Made by a program: the position numbers and the translations under genes
Source: Chaetoderma sp. LZ-2023a
Lineage: Eukaryota; Mollusca; Caudofoveata; Chaetodermatida; Chaetodermatidae
Reading direction: 5' to 3'
Length of the DNA: 64,000 nucleotides
NCBI GenBank assembly: GCA_034401795.1
Contig: CM067359.1
Coordinates: forward strand, 142,854,233-142,918,232
The notes under the pieces: generated by a model
The model's database searches: none
What the model saw: the letters and a program-made list of their open reading frames with translations, nothing else
What the model was told of the DNA's origin: nothing
Part shown: positions 35,880 through 60,886 of the stretch, piece after piece
How positions within the stretch are numbered: the stretch's first letter is position 1
Layout of the letters: the number at the start of each line of letters is the position of its first letter

Positions 35880-36219
35880 CCTTCCAGCTGCCTTGGCAAC
35901 GCTCACTTGGCAGAATGCTAAAGTGCCTACCATCTAAACCTCTGCAGACTCTAGCATGCTCACATGTGACACAGAGAATCTGGTGTTGTAGCAGGAACAG
36001 ACAACCCCGCCCTACCCTTTCTACAACACAGAAGTGGCAGGGTGAAAGCAGTCATAGATGTTTTTCCGCAGATGATCGCGTTAGGGATTGTACTGAGAGG
36101 CATCCCGGAAGTGGGCCGACTTGGCATCTAATATCATGGCAGTCTCAGTTGTCCGGACACCCGCACTCAGTACCATGGCAACGAGAACAGATACAAGTAA
36201 TAAATAGTGGTGCTAGCAT
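35880..36219 (-). pseudogene. Small secreted or membrane ORF, copy A (broken)
   Basis: Homologue of 59811-60228. On the minus strand a hydrophobic N-terminal segment is followed by TETAMILDAK, a block shared with copy B, and then a TAA about 27 codons later. Weaker similarity to the cysteine-containing C-terminal half of copy B continues to about 35880 in other frames. An ATG at 36219 follows TATATAG but is out of frame with the hydrophobic stretch. The function is unknown; the position next to the ~325-codon gene is the same in both copies. Confidence 0.45.
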
Positions 36220-36226
36220 GTTGGCT

Positions 36227-37174
36227 CTATATATGGAGGGTTAAACCAAACAGGGTGAACCCGTCGAGAAATATGTGTGTCAGATCGAGCCCTGTGCGAG
36301 CCTCGATGCGGATCTTCATACCATCTGGGGCAGGTCTTAGCAGCTTCACTTTACCACCAGCTAGAGGCTGCAGCTCTAGCACAATGGGTGTTGTTTTCAG
36401 ACATGTGAGCCCATCACGCTCGAGCAACTTCACTGAGCCCTTCACCTTCGAGGAGTGTGACACGCCATCAACCCGTAAGACTCCCTCCTGAATATTGATA
36501 GCTTCCTCTGGTCCATCAAAGGGGTGACGCAGCAGGAGATTTCCTCCAGTGACCCCAATCCTATGACCCACTGCAACTAGGGGTGTACCATCTCCTATAT
36601 AAGTCAGGAAAGATTCCCCCCCCCCCCCCCCTGTTATAAAGCTTCTTGGCCATGCCATCGTTCTTCGCAACAGTAGAGACGGGCGTGACCTCCAGGTCAA
36701 TAACTACGCGCACCAATTACCACGAGGTCCAGCGCGGTACCACACCACGTTCTTTTCGAAGACTACCTGCAGCTGGTTCACCAGGGTCAACACCACACCA
36801 TCATGTGACATCGGTGGGGCATGCTTCCCAGTCGGCTCTAAGACATGAACGCTGAGATCAGCGTCCAAAGTGCTAACATCCTCAACCTTGTCCAGTGACT
36901 GTTCTATCAGGGGGTGGAGGATGAACTTCTTCTTCGAGAAGTCATAGCAGAACAATATTTTGCCCCCATCCCTCTCTTGACACAGACGTTCCTTCGAGAC
37001 ATCCTTTAGGTCAGTGAGCAGCTCTATACCATCTCCACCGACGGGATGGAGGGAGAATGTCTTGGAGTCTGCTCCATATTGGAGGATGAACGACTTGCCA
37101 TCGCTTTCCTTAACCTTGGCGGCATCATCTTTGAGATCAGCTAGACTGGTTGAGTGAGCAAATATGGGCTCCAT
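36227..37174 (-). pseudogene. Unknown ~315-codon virus-like protein, copy A
   Basis: Two consecutive frames (36704-37174, beginning MEPIF, and 36227-36700) correspond to one gene in copy B (58830-59808). The break falls just after WYRAGP. The second half crosses a C run at ~36617-36630 that has probably changed length. Conserved blocks are YFDSKKKFILHP-like, PPM(S/A)HDG, GVTGG and RVDGVSH; no domain is recognised. The C-terminal stop TAG lies inside the CATATATAG sequence that also serves as TATA box for the next ORF. Beta-rich, Gly-spaced sequence would suit a virion protein, but this is a guess. Start ATG 37174 faces the 138-aa gene across a shared promoter. Confidence 0.6.
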
Positions 37175-37207
37175 ATATATATGGTTTAAATGGGGTGTAT
37201 AGCCATG
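37172..37207. promoter_or_regulatory. Bidirectional promoter module, copy A
   Basis: The start codons of the MEPIF gene (minus, ATG at 37174) and the next gene (plus, ATG at 37190 or 37205) are separated by 15-30 bp containing ATATATAT and GTTTAAAT. The equivalent copy B site is 58792-58829. Confidence 0.55.
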
Positions 37208-37618
37208 CCGATTGTCCGATTGCTAGTCCAAAATGGGGAGAATGTCATCAGACCATCTCTAGTTGGTGCAGTTCAGTATCGCATAGAATGGGTTCTCTTC
37301 AAGGTAGCTCAGCATTTCACCATGTATGTACATGCCGATGTGTTACATCCGCCACCAGGAAGTACCTACCACAGCTCACTGAGTGAAGTAGGGTTAGACG
37401 TGATAGAATATCTGCCAGGAGCCACCAACAAGCTGTGGAAAGCGATCAGCCCCAACATGTTCACCCACGTAAATCACCTGTTTCACAGCTCCACCATTAG
37501 TTTATATGCCAGCATGGATGGTCTGTTGGATGCCCAATTAGAGTTTATGCTGCTACTAGTTATTGACCTATCATCACGATATCATATCAGACCTATCAAG
37601 CATTCGCCAAGATGTTGA
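37205..37618 (+). pseudogene. Unknown 133-138-aa virus-like protein, copy A
   Basis: Homologue of 58390-58791. Both copies start MPIVRLL and share VIEYLP, LWKAISP and a SI(N/S)(I/L)YAS block near residues 60-110. An in-frame ATG 15 bp upstream (37190) lies directly on GTTTAAATG and could be the true start in copy A. The last ~20 residues differ from copy B because of a 1-nt shift after LEF. The short, mostly beta-type sequence with few charged runs might be a small structural protein; no family recognised. Confidence 0.5.
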
Positions 37619-37620
37619 AC

Positions 37621-38140
37621 AAGGAGCAGCCACACACCTCTGGGATGGCAGATATAGTGGTACAGGAAATGTGTTGTCGATAAGAAGGCGAGCGACTGCA
37701 GCGGGTGAGCTGGTATGAACAGAACGCCAGAGGGGCAGGGAGATGACGGGACTACAACTCTGTCCAAGAATGGGAGAGCCTCATCCATCGGGAGGAGGGC
37801 GTCATATGGTCAAACTTGTATGATTACTTGGATGATGAGTGTGGTGAGTCTGTAGAAGTCTTGCAATGGGAAGAGGAAAAGTGTAAATCCAAGAAATTCC
37901 ACCAACGGCGGGCATACTATCAGAGTGACAAGGTGAAGTTCCAGATGTCACGGCTGCGAAAGCAACTGGCCCCTGACATTATGCTGGATGAGGGGTGTTT
38001 GAGGGAGGTATATCGCCACACCAACAAGCTTGTTCAGTTCGCCAGGCTGTAAGATGAATCCTACAATGACTCATCAGCAGATCCTACATGTTATGGCACG
38101 AGTTTAAGAGCTAGGTATACCGTGGCATGTCAGCAAATCT
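37621..38140 (+). pseudogene. Acidic/basic small protein, copy A (broken)
   Basis: Homologue of 57832-58338. The clearest part is 37816-38052, with acidic residues, then YYQSDKVKFQMSRLRKQLAPDI. Stops interrupt the first half (near 37680 and 37750) and a TAA follows the FARL block. Related coding continues in another frame to ~38290, a region deleted from copy B. No known domain. Confidence 0.5.
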
Positions 38141-38352: not shown

Positions 38353-39730
38353 ATGACTACTATAGATAGCATTCCCGATGAACCTCATGACAATCGACCA
38401 GAGCCAACCGCCCCTCACGGGTACACTCTGGACCCACTCGAGAGCTGGACTACGTGGTCTCCTGGATGACATAAATGACCTAACACCTATTTCGATCATA
38501 GTCGATGGGCGGTCCCGCATCAGCTTCTCCATCAATCCACGACCACTGACCAACCTTGCAATCACCATCAAGGATGCGAAGAAAGCTCATACCTGGATGA
38601 CAGGCCCGAATCTCTCATTCTGGAATCAACAGCTGAACTTTGCCATGTGGTGTACCACAGCCTGTTGCGGCATTGGCGCGGGTTTGCTGCACTCCTATTC
38701 TGGTACCCCCAAAGCTGTGCTCATTGCCAGCTGTCTCAGATTCCATGTGTACCACGCAGTGAGACGAATCCTCCATGAGCTGGTCGCATGCCTGCCTGAT
38801 ATGAATGATTTTAACTCACAGCCCATGGGAACTGCTAGCTACATCCTCTCAGCAGCCAGTAGACTCCAGCGAGAGTTCACCGACAACTCAGACTATCGGT
38901 GGCATGGTTGTGACAACAAGGGCCTGGACATTATGTATGGTGACCCGAGATGAGACAACTCGGGCTTCCCCTATCAGACACCACAGAAAATCGGCCGTCG
39001 GAAGACAGCAACATTCTCATTCGATCCAGACTCAGAGCCTGGAGCGAGGGTGCAGAATATGCACATAACTAGCATAAGGCACGACCACACAGATGCCTGG
39101 AAATACTTTATCCCACACACAACCTCAGGGCTTACACCAGCAGGGATCGTTCGAATCAACCAGTCCTTAGAAGCATTATGTTATTTGTCTTCTAATGGCC
39201 CAGACAAAGCTGCGCTACTCTATAGATGGGGTGAGTGGCAAAGAGGTGCAGGCTATTTTCAGCAGTCTCGTCGAGGATATGATCATCATTGCAGACCCTA
39301 GGAGCCTCATTGCCAAGTTCCAGCAGACATTACAGAAGGCCCGCCACCAGCCGGACTTTGCCATATCTCCACACCTGCGGCTTATTCCAAGCAACCTGAT
39401 CATGAATATCGAGGACCTGGTAGTCAGGGGTTATAACAACATGATAGTCGAGGAAAATTCACCTGGTGTCCACCTTGGGTTTAACACTGACATCAACTCG
39501 GCCGCGCATGTCATCCCGACGCCTATGACACCTTGGTCCCCGTGGTCTCCTTCAAGGGCCAGTGCTACCGTCATTCCAACTGTCTTCCGACACACAGAGT
39601 GCTGGATGACAAATGGCGACCAGTGCTGACACCCACCAGCCTGCCTGGCAGTACTATCAGAACGATAGCCCTACGAGTGGTGTCAGGTCTGGCTATTGCT
39701 GTGCTCGTCACTAGTCTTCTCCGCCGCTAG
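38353..39730 (+). pseudogene. ~459-codon candidate virion protein, copy A only
   Basis: The likely start is ATG 38353, directly after GGCTTTAAG as at other gene starts here. Successive frames 38353-38469, 38378-39300 (with TGA at 38951-38953), 39195-39629 and 39533-39730 carry one continuous product, so at least three frameshifts and one stop are present. Landmarks: an LNFAMWCTTACCGIGAG block, FHVYHAVRRIL, DAWKYFIP with LTPAGI, and a C-terminal hydrophobic segment ending LLRR. It resembles unannotated proteins I associate with related elements in other invertebrates, but I cannot name the family. It is a candidate major structural protein by size and copy context. Copy B has lost it through a ~1.6-kb deletion at ~57830. 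Confidence 0.5.
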
Positions 39731-40223: not shown

Positions 40224-40448
40224 GATATTCCTGAATACCAATTTAAGCAGCTGACAGATGCAGAGTGGTCAGATCTGCTTAGCTCTCTCTCGATAGAAAG
40301 TACACATTTAACCGCATTGTATACTCGGGGCATAAACAATTACGTCAATGGTAAAGATTTTAAAGCAACTCCCGGAGAGCCAGGAGAGTCTCCAGAAGGT
40401 GGAGAAGCTGCACAAAAGCAAGACCCAGAAGCTACTGGCAAAGGCTAA
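40224..40448 (+). CDS. Small unknown protein overlapping the next gene, copy A
   Basis: 74 codons from MDIPEYQF; an upstream ATG at 40209 is less likely because copy B starts at the equivalent residue. The C-terminal third (GEPGES, EGGE) is acidic and lies in a frame overlapping the next gene by ~100 bp. Both frames of the overlap are conserved in copy B (57252-57506). Open in both copies. Function unknown. Confidence 0.5.
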   Translation, partial: DIPEYQFKQLTDAEWSDLLSSLSIESTHLTALYTRGINNYVNGKDFKATPGEPGESPEGGEAAQKQDPEATGKG

Positions 40449-40740
40449 GCTCCTGGCCATTCATGTCGCCAGTAACGTGGCAGCGAATGTGGCCGTGGTA
40501 AAGATGACGGGTGGTAATGAGGTTATTCCTGCTGCTGGAGCCGCTGTCCTCGCTACAGTGGCGAGTACTGTTGTTGACCACTGTCTCGGAATAACACATC
40601 CCATCCCAAAGATCGCTATCGGTGGCACCTCCTATACTGTTGTCGCCAAGATTATGGGCGAACGCAACCCTCTAATGGAAGCCGCAGTTCTAAGGCAAGC
40701 AACGAGTGCTATGCCTGAGATCATTGTGGCCTATGTCTAG
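40348..40740 (+). CDS. Conserved 130-aa hydrophobic protein, copy A (intact)
   Basis: One of very few genes uninterrupted in both copies (copy B 56987-57388). A basic N-terminal segment (LQKVEKLHKSKTQKLLAKAK) is followed by Ala/Gly/Val-rich hydrophobic stretches at about residues 38-75 and 85-125, with IPKIAIGG between them. This could be two membrane helices or an amphipathic capsid-associated segment. The reading frame overlaps the previous ORF by 101 bp. The stop TAG lies two bases before CTTTAAG and a TA tract. No family recognised. Confidence 0.55.
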   Translation: MVKILKQLPESQESLQKVEKLHKSKTQKLLAKAKLLAIHVASNVAANVAVVKMTGGNEVIPAAGAAVLATVASTVVDHCLGITHPIPKIAIGGTSYTVVAKIMGERNPLMEAAVLRQATSAMPEIIVAYV

Positions 40741-41205: not shown

Positions 41206-41709
41206 ATGTCTGTATCACTTACAAACCCAGAAAGCAAGGAGATTGGGGAGTTGGCCCACTTAGATGAAGCACGCCTCGGCTCAGAGGATACTGTTGCCCC
41301 CATCTCCTTCATGGACTTTGATGAGACGGGTAAACCACGGGAAATCTGTGGTACCATACCGGTCAGAGACCTCATCAGAAATGTACAATCCATAGGAGCC
41401 TCGGCCCTTAACAGTGCCACCACTGCATACAAAGGCATGACACTAGAGGACAGGCTAATTGTCAAAGGTGCCCTTGGGACGAGTGATGAAGAAGCCATCA
41501 AGGTGTTGGCTAAATCACAGGCACATGAGCTCATTCATAACCTGTTCAAGAGTGGACGCTCCTTCTGACTGGATGGAAATAATCTAAAGACTGGTAGGAT
41601 CACGGTCAGTGATGTTAGCGTCGATGGTGAAAAGGGGGGTTGCCTCTAAACTCCAACTCCCAGAGGTGAAGAAGTCAGGGTTCTTCGGCTTGCCATTTAA
41701 GACCTCTTA
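41206..41709 (+). pseudogene. Unknown ~165-aa virus-like protein, copy A (stops)
   Basis: Open from ATG 41206 to TGA 41566, then further homologous sequence to TAA at 41707-41709, which lies inside the CTTAAAC motif before the ATPase start. Conserved blocks with copy B (56258-56760): GSEDTVAPISF, DLI, AYKGM/VYKGM, LLKS-like, and KKSGFF near the end. No domain recognised. Its position just before the ATPase is the same in both copies. Confidence 0.5.
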
Positions 41710-41712
41710 AAC

Positions 41713-42253
41713 ATGACCTCACGTGCTTGCCTCATATGTATATTCAATGTTCTGGACACTGCTACTGACACAGGCCCTCTGCGTTACCTTCTCAGCTGTT
41801 GCTGGGATTTCATGCTCGACACCTCCATCACATCATTTGTCTCAGCTGGTGGTACAGTGATGCTGGTCCTGCAGGCAATAGAGCTCATACAGTAAGTGCT
41901 TCCATTCGGGACATGAAAAAAACATCTTGTTGAGCGCCTTGCGCATCCGTCACACCAAGATCAGTCTTCATCCTCTTTCAGAAGTACACTGATGAGGTCT
42001 CGCCAGATATCCGCCACAATACTCAGTTACTGTTCTTCAGCACGAAGTGTGGCCATGCCTGCTGGAGACCATATATGACAGCCTGACCCTCAACAAGACC
42101 AAACAGGACTCTGTTGCTGGAGTACAGAGGGTGGCTAAATGGTACCAATTCATCTTCAGCAACAAGGAGACAGGTGAGCTGTCATACTTCACGCATTCTC
42201 TGGAGAAAGCGGAAAGCTTCAGCTACAAGCTGGATCCCGCCAGGAAGAATTAG
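41713..42253 (+). pseudogene. Packaging ATPase, copy A, lacking the nucleotide-binding core
   Basis: The N-terminal 61 codons (41713-41895) and the C-terminal ~70 codons (42047-42253) align with copy B at 55340-56255. About 375 bp holding the P-loop and Walker B motif is deleted near 41900-41940, and several stops occur in between. Start ATG directly follows CTTAAAC. The intact family would drive genome packaging into a capsid; this copy cannot bind ATP. Confidence 0.55.
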
Positions 42254-42301: not shown

Positions 42302-43105
42302 TCAGGGTCGAGGAACTTCGTCAGAAGCTTGAGGAACTTCTTCAGAAGCTTGAGGAACTTTACCAGTAGCTTGAAACTTTATCCAATCAGGATAGAATGG
42401 CATGACCTTTTTCTTCCCAGACTTCTGGCGGTAGACCCACTTCTCCCATCCCCTCTTAGCATCTGCCTTGCGAGCAGGCTTGAGGAGGTAGTCGTGGTAG
42501 TTCTCGCTGGGGAATATTCTAAATGCTGTCTCATCCCTTGCCAGCTGCTCGCACCCTCTTTCCTTGAAGATGTGCTCAATGGTCTCCTTCCGACCCTCAG
42601 CCCACCCCTCCTTTGTACCAGTGGCATGCCCAGCCTCACGGCCCTCAGTCACAGCTTTTCTGATCTCTGCTCAGAAGTAATTTGTGGCCCCAGCCTGTAT
42701 ATCATCGAACAACTGGTGTTCATCATCAGTGTGGATATTGAATACACCAGTCCACTTCCCTACTGTTAGGAGATCTTTGGGATCAACCATAAACTTCTGG
42801 AGGGCTAGAATTACAGGACTCCTGGGGAGATCTAGAGACCTGCCCTGGGCACTGTCAAGCTTCTGATACAGCATCCGAGTCAATAATTCCTTCGTACTAT
42901 GGGCCAGTGTGTGTTCCTCTATAGCAGTCAGTATCTCCACATCAGACGGAGATGGGACCTTAGCTCGCTCGTGGATAATGTTAACATCACAAAGTAGTCA
43001 TCAGACCCTGTCAATCGGCAGCTGTACTGGTTTCTTCTTGGAGGGTTGCACTGGTTTCTCCCCTCAAAAGACGATCTGCTGGAGAACTTTACCTAGCATC
43101 GCCAT
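42302..43105 (-). pseudogene. Unknown ~270-codon protein with C-terminal 7-aa repeat, copy A
   Basis: Homologue of 54495-55311. ATG 43105 lies in TTTTAAATGG. The N-terminal part is interrupted near 43060 and 42955; then 42671-42940 (STKELLTR, DPKDLLTVG) and 42302-42652 are open in different frames. The latter ends in a tandem QASDEVP-type repeat (21-bp unit, 42304-42370). Charged, helix-prone sequence; function unknown. Tail-to-tail with the ATPase, divergent from the ~350-aa gene. Confidence 0.5.
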
Positions 43106-43134: not shown

Positions 43135-44187
43135 ATGCAGCAGTATGTACAACATCCAGATGAAGCAGGTGAGCCTGCAGTCTCGCATCACACTGATCCT
43201 CGGAAGGACTGTCTGACAGTCATTCGACCTAATATCCATAATGCAAACCCTTTATCCATAGTGGGGAAGTTCATTGACTTCGCCCTCTCGGGACAGATCC
43301 ATGAGATTAGGGGCATGACACTCAAGTTAAAGCTCAAGGGCACAGAGGCGAAGAAGGTAGAGCTCCCGCAGGTGCGAGATTATGCAGAGCAACAACACCC
43401 TGGACACCACCTATGTGAACGATGGGTACTGGATCATGGCTCCACTTTCTACTATGTGAATGGGAAAGGGTACTATGTCATTGGATGTAATGATGGCTTC
43501 ACAGAATTCGACTTACAACCAGACATAGAAATACCTTTCGCGGTGCCACTCTTCTCCATCCTTGAGAACACACATATGAACCCAGCCTTGATGCAGGACA
43601 AGCTGTTCCTCAAGGTATACACCGAACATCTTACGGATATAATGATGACTTCTTCACGACATCAGGTCTGGCATGATGAGAATGACCAGGAACTAAAATG
43701 TGCGGGCTCTAGACAACGAATCCTACATGTAGAGCGAGCGCATCAGTAGATTCAGGCCACAGCTAACCAGCATCTAGAGTTGACATTGTAACGAGGTGCC
43801 TCAGACTGCGTAGCTGTAGCAGTCTTGGTTCAGAAGGGAGGGATGGTCCAGGAGGTGAGGGAGCTAGATGACTTCAAACTTGCCTTGGCTGGAACCAATG
43901 TACTTGGTGAGGTGCGCAATCTGGCTGATTGTTGTTTCTATCGACAGAAAACGAGGTCATATGCCCTACTCCGCCTAACCAGTGGCCATGAGGATCTCGA
44001 GTTGGTGCTCGATGGTCAGTGCCATCTCAGAGAAGGGACATCCCACCTAACCATGGCAACCAGCTCAGCTTTAATGTTGGGAACCTGCGAGGAGGCACTC
44101 ATCCGGTCAGAGTAACAGTGCTGTACTTTGGATATAGCAAGGTTCACTTCTCGCAAAATGGAGATATTCAGCTTGAACATGCATAGA
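43135..44187 (+). pseudogene. ~350-aa candidate virion protein, copy A
   Basis: Starts MQQYVQHPDE right after GTTTAAAC. Open to TAG 43747-43749, then the same frame continues past TAA at about 43789 to ~44040, after which a frameshift leads to the common C-terminus at 44187. Aligns over its length with 53399-54464. Conserved blocks: NPLS.(V/A)GK(F/Y)IDFA near residues 39-51, FYV(N/K)GKGYY, ENTH(M/V)NPA, WHDENDQELK, GASDCVAVA. The pattern of short strands around an IDFA segment would fit a jelly-roll capsid protein, but I cannot demonstrate this. Confidence 0.55.
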
Positions 44188-44321
44188 GCATAACTCCAGC
44201 AGCTGTCTCAGCTACCATCACAGCTCTCTTTTCTCTCTACCTCCGCCGCTTTATGGTCAGCGAAACTGAGACCCAAGTTCATCAACACAAACACACCTGC
44301 ATTCAAGATTGCAGATGCCAT
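44168..44321 (-). pseudogene. Coiled-coil protein, copy A, internal deletion
   Basis: Starts MASAILNAG like copy B (53037-53453), reads ~30 codons and then joins the C-terminal hydrophobic segment (MLYACSS) after loss of ~240 bp that encode the helical middle. Its end overlaps the end of the ~350-aa gene on the opposite strand, as in copy B. Confidence 0.5.
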
Positions 44322-44371
44322 ATCTATACAGGTGATTTAAACTCGCCATATAGTCAGCAGGACTGCAAGCA
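44322..44371. promoter_or_regulatory. Bidirectional promoter module, copy A
   Basis: 50 bp between divergent starts 44321 (minus) and 44372 (plus) with CTATACAGG, GATTTAAACTC and CATATAG. The copy B equivalent is 52976-53036. Confidence 0.5.
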
Positions 44372-44814
44372 ATGTATGAACCAGAAGCTTTCGAGAATCC
44401 AGTTGAGGACTACGATGAGGACTATGATGAGGATGACTATGATGAAGACGAGGACAATGATGAGGACGCCTATGATGAAGACTATGATGGTGATTATGTA
44501 GAACCAGAATCCCGCCAACTAATCCACTGAGCCAAGGGAATTTGTTGTACCTACTTGAAGGGCTCTCTTGGCCCACTAGCAGCAGCAGCTGGGGCTCTGA
44601 TTGCTCTGTTTACAACGAAGGCTGGCAAGATGATCCGCAAAATCGCAAATAATGCTGTCCATGGAGTTCAGAAGATCTCTGAGACTATTCCAGCCATTGG
44701 CTGGGGGGGGGGGGTGTAGGTACATTCTTTGGCGTTGCCTGTTCATGGCTCCCGTATGTTGTGATAGCACTCGCAGTCATCTGGGCTGCCGAACATTTAA
44801 GACATGCTATATAA
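44372..44814 (+). pseudogene. Acidic protein with C-terminal membrane segments, copy A
   Basis: The N-terminal 50 codons are extremely acidic (repeats of DYDED from (GATGA)-type codons). A TGA at about 44528 follows. The same product continues with an Ala-rich helix, a basic patch, a G homopolymer (44701-44713) that shifts frame, and a hydrophobic helix ending at TAA 44812-44814. Homologous to 52566-52975, where the nonsense codon lies a few codons further on, so the two inactivations are independent. Might be a virion membrane or scaffold protein. The next gene starts one base later. Confidence 0.5.
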
Positions 44815-44815: not shown

Positions 44816-45062
44816 ATGGCTTCTCTGCATGACCTCGTCAAGTCCCTTAACTGGCAAGCATTTGTTGATAAGCTTCCTTTCAGTGATGGCGCCAGCACTG
44901 GAGATATTAGACAGCAGTGTTCACAGGTACTTGAAGAGGTGTTCATCGATGGTGGGATGAACGACAGTCATCTGTTCGTCTGTCACATTTTCCCGAGCTG
45001 TACAGGAGAGGACAGGAGTCGACATCAGCGATGACATCCGAGGTCCTGACAGCCTCTCTTGA
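44816..45062 (+). pseudogene. Unknown ~80-codon protein ahead of integrase, copy A
   Basis: Starts MASLHDLV after TTTAAGA and CTATATAAG. Shares LVDKL(P/S)FS and MND(S/G).LF(V/I)C with 52239-52562. A frameshift around 44990 precedes the single copy of the GVDISDD unit, which is triplicated in copy B. Function unknown; overlaps the integrase start. Confidence 0.5.
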
Positions 45063-45230
45063 AGATCTCTATTACCGACCCAGCAGCTATTAGCGTGAGC
45101 CTCACCAGCTTCTCAAGGCTGCATGTCGCAAGGGTAATAGATTCACCTTGGAGATGGTTAGACAGTGGCTTACCAGACAGGCGATGTGGCAGATCTACAG
45201 ACCTCATCCACAGCACATTCGGTATGTAGA
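45031..45230 (+). pseudogene. Integrase N-terminal fragment, copy A, cut by LTR
   Basis: From ATG 45031 the product carries LEDLYY and a QWLTRQAMWQIYRPHP block matching residues ~49-100 of the copy B integrase frame. An in-frame TAG interrupts it near 45078. The catalytic domain is missing because the gypsy LTR begins at 45231. Confidence 0.65.
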
Positions 45231-45467
45231 TGTAACTCACCAGATATAACTCACCGAACCTCCAATCTTATACCAGCCCAGGCTGCACTTCCGAATTACA
45301 TCCGTTCTCATCTAATCATTTTCTTCTTTACGCCTCTTGCACGATCTTACTTGAGTGCACATAAACTGATGACGTCAGCGGAGTTAGTGCTTAAAGCTGA
45401 TGGCAGATCTTAAATATCCCTAATAGACTAAACCGATCATAGTCTCGGCAATTCCAACTGTGTTACA
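45231..45467 (-). repeat. 3' LTR of the gypsy element (237 bp)
   Basis: On the minus strand it starts TGTAACAC and ends GAGTTACA, so its termini are TGTAAC...GTTACA. The flank is gtaga at 45226-45230. A polypurine tract (minus strand AAGGGGGGAAGAA, 45468-45480) adjoins the start, as expected for a 3' LTR. Confidence 0.8.
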
Positions 45468-49746: not shown

Positions 49747-49758
49747 GCATTATAATAC

Positions 49759-50480: not shown

Positions 50481-50539
50481 CAAGATGATGAGATATCACG
50501 AGTCTGGGGTTACCCGAATTCACCGAGGTAAGCGAGTAT

Positions 50540-52267: not shown

Positions 52268-52562
52268 CACTGACGTCCACTCCCATCCTGTCACGCATGG
52301 CCTGGATGATTTTATCACTGACGTCCACTCCCGTCCTGTCACGCACGGCCTGGGTGATTTTATCACTGATGTCCACTCCCATCCTGTCACGCACGGCCTG
52401 GGTGAACTCTAAACAGATGAACAAACGGCCATCATTCATTCGACTATCACTGAAGACCGCCTCAAACACCTCCATACACCGGTGTCTAGTCTCTGCTGGA
52501 TCCTCACTGAACGATAGTTTATCGACCAACCCTCTGACCAGGTTGTGCAGAGATGCCATCAA
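52239..52562 (-). CDS. Unknown ~107-aa protein with triplicated 16-aa unit, copy B
   Basis: Starts MMASLHNLV (or at the second Met, matching copy A) after CTATATATTG. The second half is three tandem 16-residue units of the type TQAVRDRMGVDVSDKI; copy A has a single unit. It overlaps the integrase start by 29 bp in another frame. Function unknown; coupling of the two genes is conserved in both copies. Confidence 0.5.
   Translation of the reverse strand: MMASLHNLVRGLVDKLSFSEDPAETRHRCMEVFEAVFSDSRMNDGRLFICLEFTQAVRDRMGVDISDKITQAVRDRTGVDVSDKIIQAMRDRMGVDVSDEIRAMHLS
52260..52403. repeat. Three 48-bp tandem units within coding sequence
   Basis: Units begin at 52260, 52308 and 52356 (gattt(c/t)atcactgacgtccac) and differ at a few bases. 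Being 16 codons long they keep the reading frame. Confidence 0.92.
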
Positions 52563-52565: not shown

Positions 52566-52975
52566 ATAGTATGGCTTAAATGTTGGCGCGAGTGCTATGG
52601 CAACGTATGGTAGCCTGCGACTCTGAAGAACGTACCTACTCCTGAGGCGATGGCTGGTATGGCTTCAGAAATATTCTCCACCCCATGGAGAGCATTGTTG
52701 GCGATCTTGCGTACCGTCTCGCCAGCCTTCATTGTGAACAGAGTGATCAGAGCCCCAACTGCTGCCAGCGGACTGATAGAACCTTTTACGTAAGTGCGAT
52801 AGATTCATTTCGCTCTGTGTACTAGCTTGCGGGATTCAGGCGCTACATCATCATACTCACCAGCGGTCTCTGCTACATTGTAGTCGTCTGCATCATCATC
52901 CTCATCATAGTCTTCCTCATAGTCCTCATCATCTATATCCTCGACTGGATCTTCATAAGCCTCTGGTTCACACAT
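52566..52975 (-). pseudogene. Acidic protein with C-terminal hydrophobic part, copy B
   Basis: From ATG 52975 (MCEPEAYEDPVED), Asp/Glu/Tyr-rich for ~45 codons, then TGA near 52805. Homologous sequence continues to ~52566 with an Ala/Leu helix and a basic VRKIANNALHG block. Copy A has the same layout with a nonsense codon at a different site. Confidence 0.5.
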
Positions 52976-53036: not shown

Positions 53037-53453
53037 ATGGCATCCACAATCTTGAATGCGGGCATGTTTGCCTTAGTGAACTGGGGACTCAGCTTCACTG
53101 ACAAGGCGGCAGCAGAGGTCGAGCATGAGTGTCATAACCAGGCGATGGAGAAGCTGTCTAAGGAGAAGTTTGAGTACAGCAAAGCCCTCGAGCATATGTG
53201 GCAGAGGGAGGCACGCCGACGCCAACTCCGAGCTCAAGCCAACCAGAGCCTCAAAGAGGCAGATGAGAGTCTCGATGAGTACTACGAGGCTGTAAAGATA
53301 TCTGAGCCAACGCTCGACAATGAAGCATCAACAGGTCAGAAGACAGCAGAGCTTATAGTAGTGGTGGCAGCTGCAGCGATGACCACAGGAGTCATGCTCT
53401 ACACATGCTCAAGCTTAATACCTGATGTGTTCGACACGCATACCTTAACATAG
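53037..53453 (+). CDS. Coiled-coil protein with C-terminal membrane helix, copy B (intact)
   Basis: 138 aa. After a hydrophobic start (ILNAGMFALVNWGL) a long charged helix (residues ~25-95) with regular Glu/Lys/Leu spacing (EKLSKEKFEYSKALEHM) predicts a coiled coil. Residues ~106-122 (LIVVVAAAAMTTGVMLY) form a membrane-type helix. The 3' end overlaps the ~350-aa gene's 3' end by 55 bp on the opposite strand. In copy A the coil is deleted. A role in capsid assembly or entry machinery is possible but unproven. Confidence 0.55.
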   Translation: MASTILNAGMFALVNWGLSFTDKAAAEVEHECHNQAMEKLSKEKFEYSKALEHMWQREARRRQLRAQANQSLKEADESLDEYYEAVKISEPTLDNEASTGQKTAELIVVVAAAAMTTGVMLYTCSSLIPDVFDTHTLT

Positions 53454-54464
53454 CCAAAGTAAAGTACCGTCACACCTAATGAGCGAGTCCCAGATATGAG
53501 GCTTCCGATGTTGAAGCTGAGCTGGTTGCCCTGATTAGGTGGGATGTCCCTACCCCCGAGGTGGTGACGGCCCTCGAGTGTCGTCGCTTCCACTGGTTAG
53601 GCGCAGAAGTGCATATCACATAGTTTTCTGTCTGTAGCATTGGCAATCAGCCAGCTCGCATACCTCACCAAGAACATTGGTCCCAGCAACCACATGCTTG
53701 AAGTCGTCTAGCTTATCCACCTGCTGGATGGCTCCTCCCTTCTGAACCAGGATTGCAACAGCGACACAGTCCGATGCACCACGATGCAATGTCAGCTCTA
53801 CCCGTTGGTTAGCTGTGGCTTGGACCGGCTGGTGTTCTCGCTCCACATGCACGATCTGCTGTTTGGAACCTGGTTGCTTCAGCTCCTGGTCATTCTCGTC
53901 ATGCCAGACATGAAGTCTTGGAGCATTCATCATCGCATCTGCGAGCTGCTCAGTGTACACCTGGAGGAACAGCCTATCCTGCATGGCAGCCGGATTCACG
54001 TGTGTGTTCTCGAGGAGGGTTAAGAGTGGAACTGCCATGGGCTTTTCGACACCTGACCGTAGTTGGAATTCTGTGAACCCCTCATTGCACCCCACAGCGT
54101 AGTACCCCTTTCCCTTCACATAGAAGGTTGGGCCACGAGCCAGCGGACCTAGGACTTGGTACTCATCGTTCACATTGGTGGTGTCCATGGTGCTGTTGCT
54201 CAGCCCGATCTCCCACCTGTTCAGAACCTGCAGGAGCTCTACCGTCTGTTCTATTGTGCTCTGAAGCTTGAACTCGAGTGCCATGCTCTTGATCTCGTGG
54301 ATCTGTGCCGAGATTGCAAAATCAATGTACTTCCCAGCAGCGGACAACGGGTTCTCATCATGTATCCTTGGTTGAATGACCACCAGGCAGTCCTTCCAAG
54401 GATCAGTGCAGTACGATGTCGCGGGTTCAATGGCCCCATCTGGATGTTGCACATACTGCAGCAT
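53399..54464 (-). pseudogene. ~350-aa candidate virion protein, copy B (one frameshift)
   Basis: ATG 54464 directly follows TTAAAC; the apparently longer frame to 54629 is antisense of the divergent neighbour. Open to ~53616 (about 283 codons), then shifts into frame 53399-53593 for the last ~65 residues. Blocks conserved with copy A: YVQHPDG at the start, AAGKYIDFA, YVKGKGYYAVGCNEGFTEF, ENTHVNPA, WHDENDQELK, GASDCVAVA, VTVLYFGY near the end. Sequence character and gene neighbourhood suggest a capsid-type protein; family not identified. Confidence 0.6.
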
Positions 54465-54494: not shown

Positions 54495-55311
54495 ATGGCT
54501 GCCATGTTTGGTAAAGTTCTCCAGCAGATTGCCTATAGGCAGAAGGACAAGTCGGCACGACAGCCACGGCGTGCACTGTCCCACTGTGACGGGGCCCAAA
54601 GACTGCTTCGTGACATCAACATTATCCACGAGCGAGCCAAGGTCACCCCTCCTTCTGATGCGGAGATACTGGCCGCCATAGAGGAAGGAGCGCCAGCTCG
54701 TAGTACAAAAGAACTCCTGACTCGGATACTCTACCGGAAGTTTGACAGCAGCCAGGGCAAGACACTCGACCTACCCATGGCCCCAACCAACAGTCCTGTT
54801 ATTCTAGCTCTCCAAAAGGCGAGGGTCGACCCCAAAGATCTACTAACGGTCGGGAACTGGGATGCCATACTTAGCCTCCATAGCCAGGAAGAGCGAGGTA
54901 TGCTGGATAGCCTGCAGTCTGGAGCAAATAACTACTTCAGGGAGGAGGTCAGTGGCGCTGGTCATGCAGAAGGTACTCAGGAGGGGTTCACTGTTGGCCG
55001 CAAGGAGGTGATTGGCCAGTGATCTGGCATCATTTCTGAAATTCCCAGATAACTACAAGGACTACCTCATCAAATCCGCTCGCAAGTCAGATGCTCATCG
55101 CGCATTCCATGAGAAGTTTCAGAAGAAGAGAGTCCTAGACTCTGACCCTTAGTGGGCAGAGTTTAAGCGACAGGCTTCTGACGAAACTGACGAAGTTCCT
55201 CAAGCTTCTGACGAAGTTCCTCAAGCTTCTGACGAAGTTCCTCAATCATCTGACGAAGTAGCAGAGACCACGGACGAAGTAGCGGAGACCGCGCAGCCTT
55301 CTGATGAATGA
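54495..55311 (+). pseudogene. Unknown ~270-codon protein with C-terminal 7-aa repeat, copy B
   Basis: Open from MAAMFGKVLQQ at 54495 to TGA 55020-55022 (175 codons), then continuing in another frame with DNYKDYLIKSARKSDAHRAF, a TAG near 55150, and a tail of SDEVPQA repeats (21-bp unit, ~55183-55260) ending at TGA 55311. Helix-rich, charged. The repeat tail is shared with copy A but differs in number. Function unknown; tail-to-tail with the ATPase. Confidence 0.55.
55183..55262. repeat. 21-bp in-frame tandem repeat
   Basis: gacgaagttcctcaagcttct units repeated about three to four times, encoding SDEVPQA. The reverse-strand equivalent in copy A is 42304-42370. Confidence 0.85.
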
Positions 55312-55339: not shown

Positions 55340-56255
55340 TCAGCGATGATGCGTAGAGCAGGCTAGTTTCCTGGCTGGATTCAGCTTGTAGGTGAAGGTC
55401 TGTGCCTTTTCCAGAGATGACTTGAAGTGTGACAGCTCACCTGTCTCCTTGTTCTGAAGATGAAGTGGTACAGCTCAGCTGCCCTCTGTACACCTGCGAT
55501 AAAGTCCCGTTTGGTTTCCTTGAGGGTTAGGCTGTCGTTTATGGTCTCGAGCAGGGCACATCCACACTTGGAGCTGAAGTATAGCAACCGGGCATTGTGC
55601 TGGGTGTCCGGTAGGATCTCGCGGGTGTACTTCTGAAAGAGGATGAAGACAGTTATCTTTGTGTGCCGGATGCGCCTGGTGATGTTGCTGAGGTAGGTGA
55701 CTGTCTTCTGGTCCATTGCAGGGTCATCGATAACTAGAACAAGTGGTTCCGTCAGTCAGGCGGCCAGTAGCTTCTCCATCAGTGCTTGCAGGTTCTGCAT
55801 CTTGGTGATTGGGCCATTGTACCATTGATCATTACTGTCAACCGCCTCAGCGGCGGAGTCAGACACCAGAAGGATGTATTGAGAGTAGATTTTCGGCCAG
55901 GAGAGCCCACAGTAAGATGTTTTTCCTGTGTCCTGATGGGGCAATGATCAGCACCACCTGGCCAGCATCGGCCGGCCTACTGTCGAATGGTACAAACATG
56001 CGTGCGGAGGATGGTTAGCACTTGGTCGGCGGTAGCCTCATCTATATCTGGGAGACTAAACGGCAATACTTCCTGCACAAGCTCTTTTGCCTGCAGAGCG
56101 GGGAATCCTGCACCTCCGGCGGATACAAAGGATACAATGGAGGCATCAAACATGAAATCCCAGCAGCAGCTGAGAAGATAGCGTAGAGGGCCTGTGTCAG
56201 CACCCACAGTGTCTAGTACATCCAGTATCTGTATGATACATGCATGGGAAGTCAT
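55340..56255 (-). pseudogene. A32/FtsK-like genome-packaging ATPase, copy B (frameshifted)
   Basis: Frame 56255-55977 gives the N-terminal 92 residues. The P-loop lies near 55925-55960 but is split by a frameshift: APSG is read in one frame and GKTSY in the next (55756-55944). A Walker B strand with two acidic residues (LVLVIDDP, ~55719-55743) begins the last section, which continues with an arginine/histidine-rich strand and FILFQKY (55381-55716). Order and spacing match the packaging ATPases of Maverick/Polinton and large DNA viruses, which pump DNA into capsids. At least three frame breaks make it inactive. Confidence 0.65.
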
Positions 56256-56257: not shown

Positions 56258-56760
56258 CTATCCTGTGGTATTAAACGGCAAACTAAAGAACCCTGACTTC
56301 TTCACCTCTGGTAGCCGGAGGCTGGCGGTAGCACCTGTTTGGCCGTCGACAGTGATATGGCTCAGGCCGAGGGTGCCTATCTTGAGATTCTCTCCATCCT
56401 GTCGGAATGAGCTCCGTGATTTCAGGAGATCCTTAACCAGGTCCTGTGCATAGGACTCAGCCATAACCATGATGTCTTCAGCCTCATCGACTCCGAGCAT
56501 ACCGATCATCGTCGCCCTCTCCTTGATGCCCATCCCCTTGTATACAGTCTTGGCCTTGTTAATGGCCGATTGTCCTACCGTATCAGTGTTCCCGATGAGA
56601 TCTCGGGCTGGGATGGTACCTCGGATTTCCCGCGGGTCTCCCTTCTCATCGAAGTCTAGGAAGGAGATAGGCGCAACAGTGTCCTCTGAACCGCGGCAAG
56701 CCCACCACGTGAGCAAGATCGCCTAGCTCTGCTTTCTAGGTCTGTGAATGACAGAGTCAT
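56258..56760 (-). pseudogene. Unknown ~165-aa virus-like protein, copy B (N-terminal shift)
   Basis: Frame 56258-56716 is open for ~150 codons (GSEDTVAPISF ... KKSGFFSLPF). The matching start is ATG 56760 after TATATAGCACT, in a different frame, so a small indel lies near 56710. The stop is adjacent to GTTTAAT, just upstream of the ATPase start. Function unknown. Confidence 0.5.
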
Positions 56761-56986: not shown

Positions 56987-57388
56987 TTAAATGTAGGCGA
57001 CGATGATCTCAGCCATTGCACTCGTTGCTAGCCCTAGAACCATGGCCTCCATTAGTGTAGCACGTTCACCCATGATCTTGGCAGCAACAGTGTAGGAGGC
57101 ACCACCGAGGGCGATCTTTGGGATGGGGTGAGTTATTCCAAGAGAATGCCCGGCCACCCCACTCACCACTGTAAGCAGGACAGCCGCAGTGGCGGCAGGA
57201 AGAACCTCATTTCCCCCTGTCATCTTCACCATGGCCACATTCGCCGCCACGTTACTGGCTACATGGACTGCCAGAGGTTTTGCCTTGGTCAGTAACTTCT
57301 GTGTCTTGGTTCGCAGCAGGTTCTCCACCTTCTGAAGACTCACCTGGCTCTCGGGCAGTTGCTTCACGATCTGTACCATTGACGTCAT
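56987..57388 (-). CDS. Conserved 133-aa hydrophobic protein, copy B (intact)
   Basis: Homologue of 40348-40740, ~70% identical by eye, no stops. Basic helix (LQKVENLLRTKTQKLLTKAK) then two Ala/Val/Gly-rich segments separated by IPKIALGG. The stop lies inside TTTAA upstream of the Cys ORF. Its 5' part overlaps the preceding ORF by 137 bp. Confidence 0.55.
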   Translation of the reverse strand: MTSMVQIVKQLPESQVSLQKVENLLRTKTQKLLTKAKPLAVHVASNVAANVAMVKMTGGNEVLPAATAAVLLTVVSGVAGHSLGITHPIPKIALGGASYTVAAKIMGERATLMEAMVLGLATSAMAEIIVAYI

Positions 57389-57831: not shown

Positions 57832-58338
57832 TTAAATCGGCATCACCTGCAGAATCTGCTCATGAGTCATTTTGGAGAGCCTGGCGAATCGTGCCAGCTT
57901 GCTGGTTTCGAGACAGACGTCTCTTATACATAGGTCATCCAGCACTATGTCGGGTGCCAGTAGCTTTCTGAGACGTGACATCTGGAACTTCACCTTATCA
58001 CCAAGATAGTAGGTCCGCCGCTGGCTGGTTTTCTTGATCTTACACTTCTGCGCCATCTCCTCTTCCCACTGTATGACATCTGGCTCATCCTCGTCTGAGA
58101 AGCCACCTGACTCATCATCGTCTGTGAAGACAGCTAGCTCATCGTCATCTGTCAAGACCCCTGCATCCCGCTTACTCTCCTCCAGGAGGGCCTGCCAGTA
58201 TCGGAAACTTTCACTGTTCCTTCGCCTCCATGCAAGGCTTGTGTTCTGTTGATACCAGTTCTCCCACTGTAGTCGCTCTCCTTCTTGTTGCAGTGCGAGC
58301 CTCTGTTCGTTTAAGGCCTTTATCTGTGCAGGGGTCAT
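57832..58338 (-). CDS. Acidic/basic small protein, copy B (open)
   Basis: 168 codons. A Gln/Glu-rich helix, a Trp/Tyr region, a strongly acidic middle (TDDDE, DEDEPD) and a basic C-terminal part with DKVKFQMSRLRKLLAPDI. Copy A is broken in the first half but longer at the C-terminus, so the copy B end (QILQVMPI) is probably created by the deletion junction. Function unknown. Confidence 0.5.
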   Translation of the reverse strand: MTPAQIKALNEQRLALQQEGERLQWENWYQQNTSLAWRRRNSESFRYWQALLEESKRDAGVLTDDDELAVFTDDDESGGFSDEDEPDVIQWEEEMAQKCKIKKTSQRRTYYLGDKVKFQMSRLRKLLAPDIVLDDLCIRDVCLETSKLARFARLSKMTHEQILQVMPI

Positions 58339-58389
58339 GAAGGGGCTAACCTGTCGGCCAAGGTCAGATAATGCTGATATGATATCATG

Positions 58390-58791
58390 TCAGGTCAATG
58401 AGTAAAATAAGAATGTAAACTCTAAATGGGCATCCGATATCCCATCCGTGCTGGCATATATGTTAATGGAGGGGCTGTCAAACAGGTGATTTACAGGTGT
58501 GAACAGGCTGGGACTGATAGCTTTCCATAGGTTGCTGTGGGCACCTGGGAGATACTCTATCACATCCCGGCCGACTTCTACTAGTGAGCTGCTGTGTGCA
58601 CTGCCCAGAGGTTGAGCTGCTGTGTGCACTGCCCAGAGGTTGATGTAGCACATCGGCGTGTAAGTATGTTGTGCCCGCTGGGGCACCTCGAAGGGGACCC
58701 ATTCTACATGGTACTGTACCACCCGTCTCCCCTCTAGAGAGGGTGAGATTATGTTCTCACCACTGGAGAGCAGCAGTCGGACAATCGGCAT
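58390..58791 (-). CDS. Unknown 133-aa virus-like protein, copy B (open)
   Basis: Starts MPIVRLLLSSGEN; the middle contains a short duplicated phrase (AVHTAAQPL / SAHSSS from repeated gctgctgtgtgcactgccca at ~58579-58625) absent from copy A. Conserved DVIEYLPG and LWKAISPS. No family recognised. Confidence 0.5.
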   Translation of the reverse strand: MPIVRLLLSSGENIISPSLEGRRVVQYHVEWVPFEVPQRAQHTYTPMCYINLWAVHTAAQPLGSAHSSSLVEVGRDVIEYLPGAHSNLWKAISPSLFTPVNHLFDSPSINIYASTDGISDAHLEFTFLFYSLT

Positions 58792-58829
58792 AGTTATATG
58801 GCTTGTTTAAACCCCTCCTATAGCATGCT
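58792..58829. promoter_or_regulatory. Bidirectional promoter module, copy B
   Basis: 38 bp between ATG 58791 (minus) and ATG 58830 (plus) with GTTATATGG, a central TTGTTTAAAC and CCTATAGC. The equivalent in copy A is 37175-37204. Confidence 0.55.
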
Positions 58830-59808
58830 ATGGAACCCATCTTTGCTCAGTCGACTGGTCTTGCTGACCTGGCAGATGTGTACGAGTTGATGCTGCCAAG
58901 GTAGAAGAGAGTGATGGCAAGTCATTCGCCCTACAGTATGAAGCAAGCTCAAAGGCATTCTCCCTCCACCCCATTTTGGTGGTGATGGGGTGGAGCTGCT
59001 CACAGACCTCAAGGATGTGACGAAGTAGCACCTGGGTCGCAACATAGATGGCAATAAGATTGTGTTTCGGTACGATTTCCCGAAGAGGAAGTACATCCTC
59101 GAGCCAATGATTGAGGTCTCGGATACAGAGGTGGCAGACATCAACACCCTGAATAACGACCCCAGCTTTCATCTGGTCACACCCTATTCGAGCGGTGCCC
59201 CGCCGATGGCCCACGATGGCCAGCTATTGACCCTGGCAAAAAACCTGCAGTTCATATTTGAGAAGAATGAAGTGTGGTACCGCGCTGGACCTGGGGGTGA
59301 CTGGCAAACATGGTTGCCCCTATATAGGCCTCCTGCAGTCATTGACATAGAGGTTACTCCCCTCTCCGCTGTTGTAAAAAAGGATGGGACAGTTCGAAAG
59401 CTCTACAATCGGGGATCGTCCTTCCTCACCTACATAGGTGAAGCTGTCTCCCTGACGAGGGTGGGTCACCAGATCGGGGTTACAGGTGGAAAGCTCCTGC
59501 TGCGTCGTCCATTCGATGGACCAGAAGAAGCTGTTAACCTCCAGGAGGGCACCCTACGGGTAGATGGTGTGTCACATGTCTCCAAAGTCAAGGGTGATGT
59601 TAAACTGCTTCAGCGAGACGGACTCACTAACCCACAAACGACTCATATAGTCCTAGAACTACATTTCTTAGCCGGCTGCAGAGTGAAGCAGCTAGCCCCT
59701 GCCCCTGAGGGGATGAAGATCACTATCGATCCGGATGGAACAGGGTTCGATCTGGCACAGATATTTCTCTAGGGCTTCACTCTGTTAAGTTTAACTCTTC
59801 ATATATAG
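58830..59808 (+). pseudogene. Unknown ~325-codon virus-like protein, copy B
   Basis: Begins MEPIFAQST; frameshifts and a TAG near 59025 break the first ~75 codons, after which 59062-59772 is open for 236 codons. A TAG at 59770-59772 precedes the stop used in copy A (equivalent to 59806-59808). Blocks: PPMAHDG, VWYRAGPGGDW, SFLTYIGE, HQIGVTGGKLLLRRPFDGP, RVDGVSHVSKVKG. The sequence is beta-rich; no domain recognised. Confidence 0.55.
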
Positions 59809-59810
59809 CC

Positions 59811-60228
59811 ACGATTCTCATCATACTGCTTGCGCTGACGTCTACAGCAGGGGCACAGGACGTTGAGACTGCCATGATATTGGATGCCAAGTGGGCCCAC
59901 TTCCGGGATGACCCCCCAGTACAATCCTTGGGTCGACCCCTTGCGGAGAAACATTTATGACCGCTTTCACCCACGTGAAGAGATCATGTCTGTCTGCCAC
60001 TTCTATGGAGTGGAGAGGGTAGGCCGTGGTTGTCTGCTGGAGACCCCTGCTCAGCACCAGATTCTCTGCGTAACATGTGAACATGTCAGAGTCTATCGTG
60101 GTTCAAATGCTAATCACTTTATCCTCCTCCCAGGTGAGCATGAAAACATCCATTGGAGTGATGGCATCCTTATGACCATAAGCCAGGGTGTCAATACCAT
60201 CATGAGCGATCCATCGCTTTATGTCTAA
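59811..60228 (+). pseudogene. Small secreted or membrane ORF, copy B (frameshifted)
   Basis: A hydrophobic signal-like segment (LIILLALTSTAGAQ) starts just after TATATAGCC; the expected ATG is ACG here. It is followed by TAMILDAKWAHFRD. A C run near 59912 has one extra base compared with copy A, moving the rest into frame 59884-60228 (four cysteines: CHFYGVE, GRGCLLE, ILCVTCEH). The end overlaps the polymerase fragment tail to tail. Could be a small secreted or envelope-associated protein. Confidence 0.45.
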
Positions 60229-60886
60229 GGGGGAGGCTTGTTTTGGTCTGGTGGACCCCATAGAGGTGGTGACCCTCACTTCGCAGCATGTTCATACCAT
60301 GGTGGAAGACATTTCGCTTGAAGAGGCATTCCTTGTACTGCTCATGGCGAACCTGTCTAACCACAGCCCTGCACACACCCTTTGCCTTCTTGACTTCCTG
60401 TTCATCCAACCGCTTGATAGAGTACATCTTCGGGTGCAGGCCAACAAACTCCTGGATTGGCACCCCGGCACACTCATCCTTCATGTTGCCCAGGACCCAC
60501 TTGTTGGCAGTACTGTGTAGCGGGTGTGTTACTGGGTAGTTGCTTGGATCATAGAGGTCGCTCCTCGCAGCCATATCAGCATAGACAGCCTTAGTCTGGC
60601 TCTCCACCAGGAAGCTATCTGTGTCAGTGTACAGGAGCACACAGTTGGCACCATATAGATGCGTCAGCTGGTTGTAGTAGAAGTTGGCTTGGCTATTAGG
60701 TGGTGCAGCTTGTCCTCCTCGGATGCCTGCACTAGCTTGACATCCACTCACGTGCTCAATTTCTCCATGGTCTTACCGAAGACAGTGTTATTCATCAGCT
60801 TGTAGAGATCGATCCTCGCCGCCAAATCAGCATAGACAGCCTTAGTCTGGCTCTCCACCAGGAAGTTATCTGTGTCAGTGTACACT
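60200..60886 (-). pseudogene. Family B DNA polymerase C-terminal fragment (motif C), rearranged
   Basis: Frame 60751-60200 carries motif C as YTDTDSF (residues 41-47), then KWVLGNMKDEC, VGLHPKMYSIKRL and the thumb region, typical of protein-primed polymerases. Upstream, a motif B-like MNNTVFGKT is read near 60785-60760. Further upstream still, a second diverged motif C stretch (YTDTDNF, ~60860-60886) appears. The ~82-bp segments 60553-60634 and 60805-60886 are duplicates, so the order C-B-C is a rearrangement. The rest of the gene is cut by a LINE. Confidence 0.75.

What the first reader, a model, noticed from the sequence alone, without database searches (positions are those of the whole stretch)
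35880..60886. Relics of an apparently undescribed Maverick/Polinton-like virus lineage
Seen: RVE-type integrase, packaging ATPase and family B polymerase fragments together with about a dozen small genes conserved between two copies. Known: integrase + protein-primed PolB + A32-like ATPase is the hallmark of Maverick/Polinton/adintovirus elements. Unusual: no protease of the adenovirus type and no capsid protein I can name; most genes are unknown and very small. Inference: a divergent lineage with its own structural proteins.
Basis: partly seen in the sequence, partly recalled or inferred. Interest (0 to 1): 0.88.

Follow-up and report, generated by a model that had tools for sequence, protein, structure and literature searches.

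The report
Broken Polinton-like viruses, unusual lineage
The window holds two old, broken copies of a Polinton/Maverick-type virus family that is found in many other places of the same genome; its integration and packaging genes are of a known kind, but its gene order, DNA polymerase and probable shell proteins are unusual.

Summary
Copy A (about 35.9-45.2 kb, +) and copy B (about 49.5-60.1 kb, inverted) share about a dozen collinear genes, main blocks 66-79% identical in DNA. In 14 gene pieces compared, dN/dS is 0.13-0.45, so both descend from functional elements. Hallmarks are a Polinton-type integrase (1872 database relatives; 12 aligned are 46-53% identical), a family B polymerase and an A32/FtsK-type ATPase.

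A search of the same genome scored 118 further places, all matching. Five copies with both ends measure 15.7-16.6 kb, with inverted repeats of 274-488 bp and AGTAGT...ACTACT termini as in vertebrate Mavericks. Target duplications are 5 bp, exact in four of five; vertebrate Mavericks have 6 bp.

Integrase and polymerase converge at one end. The polymerase is about 23% identical to one lying beside a related integrase on an outside contig. No capsid protein, penton or Ulp1 protease was recognised. A ~420-aa protein has distant database relatives; for the 358-aa protein X9 none was found.

"Undescribed" and "own structural proteins" remain unproven: both fold predictions failed. The polymerase fragment at 60172-60884 belongs to a different Polinton type.

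The parts
35875..36051 (-). copy A, X12 remnant
   Evidence: 58.6% over 58 aa to B 59878-60225, E 1e-20
36227..37174 (-). copy A, X1 (two frames), opposite strand to most genes
   Evidence: 57-71% aa to B 59029-59769, dN/dS 0.14-0.20
37190..37618 (+). copy A, X2
   Evidence: 57% to B 58393-58806, dN/dS 0.23
37747..38049 (+). copy A, X3
   Evidence: 50% to B 57835-58389, dN/dS 0.45
38378..39629 (+). copy A, the ~420-aa protein with a QLNFA...RFHVY motif, in two pieces (38378-38953, 39195-39629); deleted in B
   Evidence: P0001 E 4e-9 and four more database relatives of the first piece; present in 14 of 15 sister stretches; dN/dS 0.10-0.26 against sister copies
40336..40740 (+). copy A, X4
   Evidence: 78% to B 56990-57391, dN/dS 0.19
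41206..41568 (+). copy A, X5
   Evidence: 57% to B 56261-56722, dN/dS 0.33
41701..42250 (+). copy A, X6 and packaging ATPase remnant; Walker A and B not found here
   Evidence: 70% and 64% to B pieces
42302..42997 (-). copy A, X8
   Evidence: 63% to B 54495-55019, dN/dS 0.22
43135..44183 (+). copy A, X9 (358 aa in sister copies), broken
   Evidence: 58-76% to B, dN/dS 0.22-0.25
44211..44336 (-). copy A, X10 remnant
   Evidence: 68% over 31 aa to B 53022-53450
44531..44716 (+). copy A, X11 remnant
   Evidence: 69% to B 52598-52804, dN/dS 0.13
45046..45246 (+). copy A, integrase N-terminus; similarity stops here
   Evidence: E 1.8e-7 to P0017; 73% to B
49532..49830 (-). copy B, right terminal inverted repeat; element end near 49532
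   Evidence: 49533-49830 is 88% to the right end of sister copy L057; terminus itself damaged
49771..49947 (+). copy B, Cys-rich ORF at the element end
   Evidence: 37% to an L001 ORF, E 6e-11
50051..50388 (.). copy B, 77-bp tandem array, related to arrays beside the terminal repeats of sister copies
50420..51260 (+). copy B, part of the family polymerase (motif A and motif B region), ends approximate
   Evidence: a sister copy piece matches DNA_pol_B_2 at E 0.0042
51281..52390 (-). copy B, integrase, convergent with the polymerase; the first residues of this ORF are a tandem-repeat frame
52598..52804 (-). copy B, X11
53037..53453 (+). copy B, X10
53402..54464 (-). copy B, X9, broken near its 3' end
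   Evidence: 119 of 119 scored places in the own genome match the 53616-54629 query, the window included; no database relative found
54495..55308 (+). copy B, X8
55384..55980 (-). copy B, A32/FtsK-type packaging ATPase, broken
55977..56255 (-). copy B, X6
56258..56716 (-). copy B, X5
56987..57388 (-). copy B, X4
57832..58338 (-). copy B, X3
58390..58791 (-). copy B, X2
59029..59772 (+). copy B, X1
59884..60228 (+). copy B, X12; similarity to the three other left ends compared stops before it
60172..60884 (-). polymerase C-terminal fragment of a different Polinton type, rearranged; not counted as part of copy B
   Evidence: 47% to L001 polymerase, E 1.7e-39; internal repeat

Best explanation
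Copies A and B are decayed insertions of two subfamilies (about 25% apart in DNA) of one Polinton/Maverick-type virus lineage that multiplied in this genome. Shown: integrase, family B polymerase and A32/FtsK-type ATPase genes; terminal inverted repeats with AGTAGT//ACTACT ends; 5-bp target duplications; a 15.7-16.6 kb unit; purifying selection between subfamilies and weaker constraint, near neutral, among copies within one. Inferred: the linear DNA is copied from its ends by a protein-primed polymerase, packaged by the ATPase into a capsid built from some of the unknown proteins (X9 and the ~420-aa protein are the leading candidates), and joined to host DNA by the integrase. The lineage pairs an integrase of the common Polinton kind with a distant polymerase, convergent at one end, so it probably arose by gene exchange between Polinton types.
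For: Collinear inverted copies; dN/dS 0.13-0.45 and 0.10-0.26 for the ~420-aa gene against sister copies; integrase relatives and a tree of 123 integrases in which the four family members form one clade, support 1.0, stem 0.56; polymerase motifs A, B and C in sister copies; DNA_pol_B_2 0.0042 and Pox_A32 0.0016 in sister copies; a textbook P-loop in one sister copy; integrase followed by convergent polymerase in 4 of 7 right stretches of sister copies and in the outside contig L001; terminal repeats, target duplications, lengths; 119 of 119 scored genomic places match X9.
Against: No capsid protein, penton or protease recognised; TSD is 5 bp, not the 6 bp of vertebrate Mavericks; no OTU-like motif found in the stretches scanned (no positive control run); Pfam scores for polymerase, ATPase and integrase are below the curated cut-offs; of five family polymerase pieces compared with L001 only two gave a match. 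Fold predictions failed. Polymerase exchange rests on one outside contig.
Confidence: 0.8

Rival explanations
1. A sub-case that does not exclude the best explanation: an ordinary Polinton/adintovirus whose standard capsid, penton and protease genes are present but too diverged or decayed to be seen with the tools used; X9 and the ~420-aa protein would be the usual capsid genes.
For: The ~420-aa protein has database relatives; termini, size and TIR length fit vertebrate Mavericks; Krupovic et al. report below 15% identity between Polinton and chlorovirus capsid proteins and low similarity among pentons (PMC4028283, section 3 part 1). No HHpred-grade search was available.
Against: No relative of X9 was found by the protein search (810 candidates scored) and no PDB profile hit; gene order and TSD length differ from vertebrate Mavericks.
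Confidence: 0.45
2. A transposon lineage that has lost its capsid genes and spreads only inside genomes, as some Polintons do.
For: No capsid or protease recognised; Krupovic et al. report nine Polintons lacking MCP, protease and ATPase together; many copies in one genome.
Against: The packaging ATPase remnant and about ten further genes show purifying selection between the two subfamilies, and a sister copy keeps the ATPase P-loop.
Confidence: 0.15
3. A and B are one old insertion that was later duplicated and inverted within the host chromosome.
For: They lie near each other in inverted orientation.
Against: dS about 0.7-1.6 with dN/dS 0.13-0.45 requires long functional divergence before insertion; B is 6-8% from 29 other genomic loci while A is on average 25% from them.
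Confidence: 0.03

Closest known systems
Vertebrate Mavericks/Polintons (Barreat and Katzourakis 2021, PMC8097293; passages and section 7 seen)
   Same: rve integrase, family B polymerase, ATPase; AGTAGT//ACTACT termini as their commonest motif; TIR 274-488 bp here against a mean of 402 bp (46-1,447); 15.7-16.6 kb here against a mean of 16.9 kb; mostly defective copies
   Different: TSD 5 bp here, 6 bp there; integrase and polymerase converge at one end here, while there they lie in separate modules that point to the centre from different strands (a toad and a frog are named as exceptions); ATPase lies in the block with the unknown genes here, in the polymerase module there; no protease, MCP or mCP recognised here
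Adintoviruses and related animal viruses (definition as passages in the Buck et al. preprint PMC11071296; Starrett et al. 2021 not held)
   Same: integrase, polymerase and FtsK-like ATPase in an animal; the preprint also describes an adomavirus from a Tegillarca clam dataset with adintovirus-like virion proteins and an ATPase
   Different: no hexon or penton recognised here; no OTU-like motif found in the polymerase stretches scanned; no chromodomain reported by Pfam in the integrase
Polinton on outside contig L001 (MAG 'Oligoflexia bacterium' JANQFH010000027.1)
   Same: integrase 51% identical in its best segment, convergent with a polymerase, Cys-rich ORF beyond the polymerase
   Different: polymerase only about 23% identical where comparable; no capsid-side gene was recognised on this short contig
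Mavericks of the clam Mercenaria mercenaria (PMC8905726, one table row seen)
   Same: the row gives 7091 and 6453 with 1.69 and 1.93, which I read as copies and percent of genome: Mavericks can be very numerous in a mollusc
   Different: no gene content in the passage seen

Membership tests
Polinton/Maverick | rve-type integrase of the Polinton kind | tested here: met
   1872 relatives; 46-53% identity in the 12 aligned; D120, D185, E220 (taken as the catalytic triad) invariant
Polinton/Maverick | protein-primed family B polymerase | tested here: inconclusive
   family B motifs A, B, C in sister copies, DNA_pol_B_2 E 0.0042 below cut-off; terminal-protein/OTU part not recognised
Polinton/Maverick | FtsK/A32-type packaging ATPase | tested here: met
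   Walker A site in 6 of 7 sister stretches and window B, intact in one; Pox_A32 E 0.0016, below curated cut-off
Polinton/Maverick | terminal inverted repeats with AGT/ACT ends | tested here: met
   five copies with both ends; one of the ten ends departs by one base; a sixth copy had no recognisable left end
Polinton/Maverick | 6-bp target site duplication (as in vertebrate Mavericks) | tested here: not met
   5 bp exact in 4 of 5; in the fifth 4 of 5 bases agree
Polinton/Maverick | double jelly-roll MCP and single jelly-roll penton | tested here: inconclusive
   no family or PDB sequence match; models failed
Polinton/Maverick | Ulp1/adenain-type protease (identifiable in 74% of Polintons per PMC4028283) | tested here: inconclusive
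   no Pfam match among the window pieces and sister-copy ORFs scanned; not every ORF was scanned
Adintovirus | polymerase with N-terminal OTU-like domain | tested here: inconclusive
   no OTU-like motif in the seven right-end stretches by pattern, no positive control run; no Pfam hit
Adintovirus | hexon recognisable by BLASTP | not testable with these tools
   no reference hexon sequence was at hand

The most novel reading that the evidence does not exclude
A Polinton lineage of an animal genome that kept a standard integrase and packaging ATPase, exchanged its polymerase for a distant one, makes 5-bp instead of 6-bp target duplications, and builds its particle from proteins unrelated in sequence to known Polinton capsid, penton and protease.
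Probability: 0.3. Interest if true: 0.75.

Novelty: new variant of a known kind. Interest (0 to 1): 0.52.

Why it matters
Polintons are held to be near the root of many eukaryotic DNA viruses. A lineage with a recombined replication module and unidentified particle genes, found at over a hundred places in one genome, gives enough natural sequence diversity to ask which Polinton parts are exchangeable and whether capsids outside the known set exist.

Tried and rejected
Rejected: (1) my first idea that the ~420-aa protein is the major capsid protein: it rested on recall; the model of its window piece failed (pLDDT 38.7, mostly helical at low confidence) and the PDB profile search gave only chance hits; identity left open. 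(2) That the 50-kb and 60-kb polymerase pieces are halves of one gene split by an inversion: the 50-kb piece runs on past the supposed break and the two are of different polymerase types. (3) Duplication of one insertion as the origin of A and B. Copy number is therefore only a lower bound.
Full report
What was checked. The window lies in a 2.44-Gb assembly of 2753 contigs. Self-comparison of the window shows two inverted, collinear copies: A, 35901-45226 on the + strand, and B, 60139-52075 on the - strand; the main blocks are 66-79% identical in DNA. Stop-to-stop pieces of A and B pair gene by gene. For the 14 coding pieces tested, dN/dS is 0.13-0.33 in 13 and 0.45 in one, and dS 0.73-1.61. 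Of three other-strand controls one gave 2.14, but two gave 0.38 and 0.16, so this measure alone does not fix the coding strand; the frames kept in sister copies carry that part of the argument. A and B are therefore not a recent duplication of one dead insertion.

What the genes are. The integrase of B (51281-52390, -) is weak in Pfam (rve, E 3e-4) but has 1872 relatives; the 120 listed score E 1.6e-99 to 4.7e-79, and the 12 of them aligned with it are 46-53% identical, with three acidic residues taken as the catalytic triad invariant. In a midpoint-rooted tree of 123 integrases the window copy and three genomic sister copies form one clade (support 1.0) on a stem of 0.56 substitutions per site; the tree holds only the listed hits of at most 400 aa, L001 and the family, and no named references. 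The ATPase of B shows a Walker A-like and a Walker B stretch in different frames; six of seven sister stretches show the same site, one with a textbook P-loop, the others altered; one sister piece matches Pox_A32 at E 0.0016, below the curated cut-off. The family polymerase is represented in B by about 50.4-51.26 kb; sister copies show motifs A, B and C and one piece matches DNA_pol_B_2 at E 0.0042, below cut-off.

Outside comparison. A scan of prokaryote genome contigs with the integrase alignment gave one confirmed locus, L001, 5.1 kb, filed as an Oligoflexia MAG. It carries integrase, then a convergent polymerase, then a Cys-rich ORF, and is most likely eukaryotic DNA binned by mistake (inference). 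Window B has the same order: Cys-rich ORF (E 6e-11 to L001), polymerase, convergent integrase. The family's own polymerase is, however, only about 23% identical to that of L001: of five natural family pieces compared, one matched over 317 positions (E 4e-17), one over 67 (E 4e-5) and three not at all. The polymerase fragment at 60172-60884 is 47% identical to L001. So two polymerase types lie in the stated span, and the 60-kb fragment is not counted as part of copy B.

The family in its genome. A search with X9 of B scored 119 places and all 119 matched: the window itself and 118 others, 84-89% identical (8878 first-look candidates were not all scored, so this is a lower bound); 36 of the 119, the window included, have no stop inside the match (counted by hand). 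Two pairs among the 29 other loci fetched are identical (L015/L016, L027/L028) and may be assembly duplicates. These 29 differ pairwise by a median of 5.9%, without close clusters apart from those pairs; B differs from them by 6-8% and A by 25% on average. Private changes in X9 among 30 loci have dN/dS 0.68 (83 synonymous, 178 replacement, 10 stop), and three ~420-aa genes compared with each other give 0.66-0.80, against 0.10-0.26 between A and these copies: selection between subfamilies, weaker constraint within one. The loci were chosen by high X9 score, which biases the first figure downward.

Ends. Left and right stretches were fetched for chosen copies. Of seven left stretches five carry X1; of seven right stretches four carry integrase followed by convergent polymerase, one (L058) the polymerase alone, and two (L055, L059) neither. 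Six copies were examined for both ends; in one (L065/L057) the left terminus was not found. The other five measure 15,678-16,565 bp, have terminal inverted repeats aligned over 274-488 bp at 84-98% identity, and begin AGTAGT (one with one base changed) and end ACTACT; 5-bp target duplications are exact in four, and in the fifth four of five bases agree. Vertebrate Mavericks have the same commonest end motif and similar sizes but 6-bp duplications and a different arrangement of integrase and polymerase (PMC8097293, passages and section 7). A search of the held library for Maverick, Polinton and '5-bp target site' together gave no paper. The right end of window B lies at about 49,532, found by alignment; a pattern search for the terminus found none in the window. 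Its left repeat was not found. A and B share a piece X12 on that side, while similarity of the three left ends compared (L047, L049, L053) stops before it.

The unknown genes. The ~420-aa protein is broken in A, absent from B, and present in 14 of 15 sister stretches fetched for it. Its first window piece has five database relatives at E 4e-9 to 9e-4, of unknown source organism and without a name; candidates were limited to short proteins by the query's length. For X9 (358 aa in sister copies) no relative reached E 0.001 among 810 candidates, and a profile found nothing in PDB sequences. No capsid, penton or protease family was matched by the pieces scanned. X9 reads as strand-rich and is my favourite for a capsid protein; this is inference from reading the sequence only.

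Likely working. Shown are the parts list, ends, duplications and selection pattern. Inferred from the known families: protein-primed copying of linear DNA from its repeat ends, packaging by the ATPase, insertion by the integrase. That the particle proteins are new is possible and untested.

Literature seen. PMC4028283: abstract and section 3 part 1. PMC8097293: passages and section 7. PMC11071296, PMC11071308, PMC2836005, PMC10294476, PMC8905726: passages found by term only. PMC10294476 states that Mavericks occur in all mollusc genomes it analysed. Searches for mollusc, bivalve or gastropod Polintons, Mavericks or adintoviruses listed, by title and abstract start, no paper devoted to the gene content of such elements; the library lacks most subscription journals and the founding adintovirus paper. 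Some integrase hits come from MAGs of Thiodiazotropha and Sedimenticola, which I recall as bivalve symbionts.

Noticed in passing
window 45701-48719 (-): Ty3/gypsy-type retroelement relic between copies A and B: reverse transcriptase E 5e-20, RNase H E 7e-15, integrase p58 C-terminus E 2e-7; no LTR-like direct repeat pair found at 45100-49800.
   Followed up: partly
window 60929-62386 and 23796-26660: Two repeat blocks of 87-94% identity, one of them directly beside the 60-kb polymerase fragment.
   Followed up: no
window 16258-16350 (-): Short match (31 aa, 48%, E 4e-4, one stop) to the N-terminal part of the L001 polymerase: a possible further Polinton relic.
   Followed up: no
window 60552-60633 and 60803-60884: An 82-bp piece of the polymerase fragment is repeated at 94% identity, so this fragment is rearranged.
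   Followed up: partly
L001 and hits: Polinton-type integrases sit in records named as bacterial MAGs (Oligoflexia, Thiodiazotropha, Sedimenticola), most likely animal DNA binned as bacterial.
   Followed up: no
L047, L049, L061, L062 terminal blocks: The terminal repeat of one subfamily is itself bounded by inverted copies of the terminus about 285 bp apart, beside arrays with a 67-bp step.
   Followed up: partly
window 6848-8624 and 10385-11893: Long tandem arrays (237-bp unit, 7.5 copies; several short-unit arrays).
   Followed up: no
L001 1894-3291 (-): The L001 polymerase frame also matches Pfam Endonuclease_7 at E 1.3e-4, just below the cut-off.
   Followed up: no
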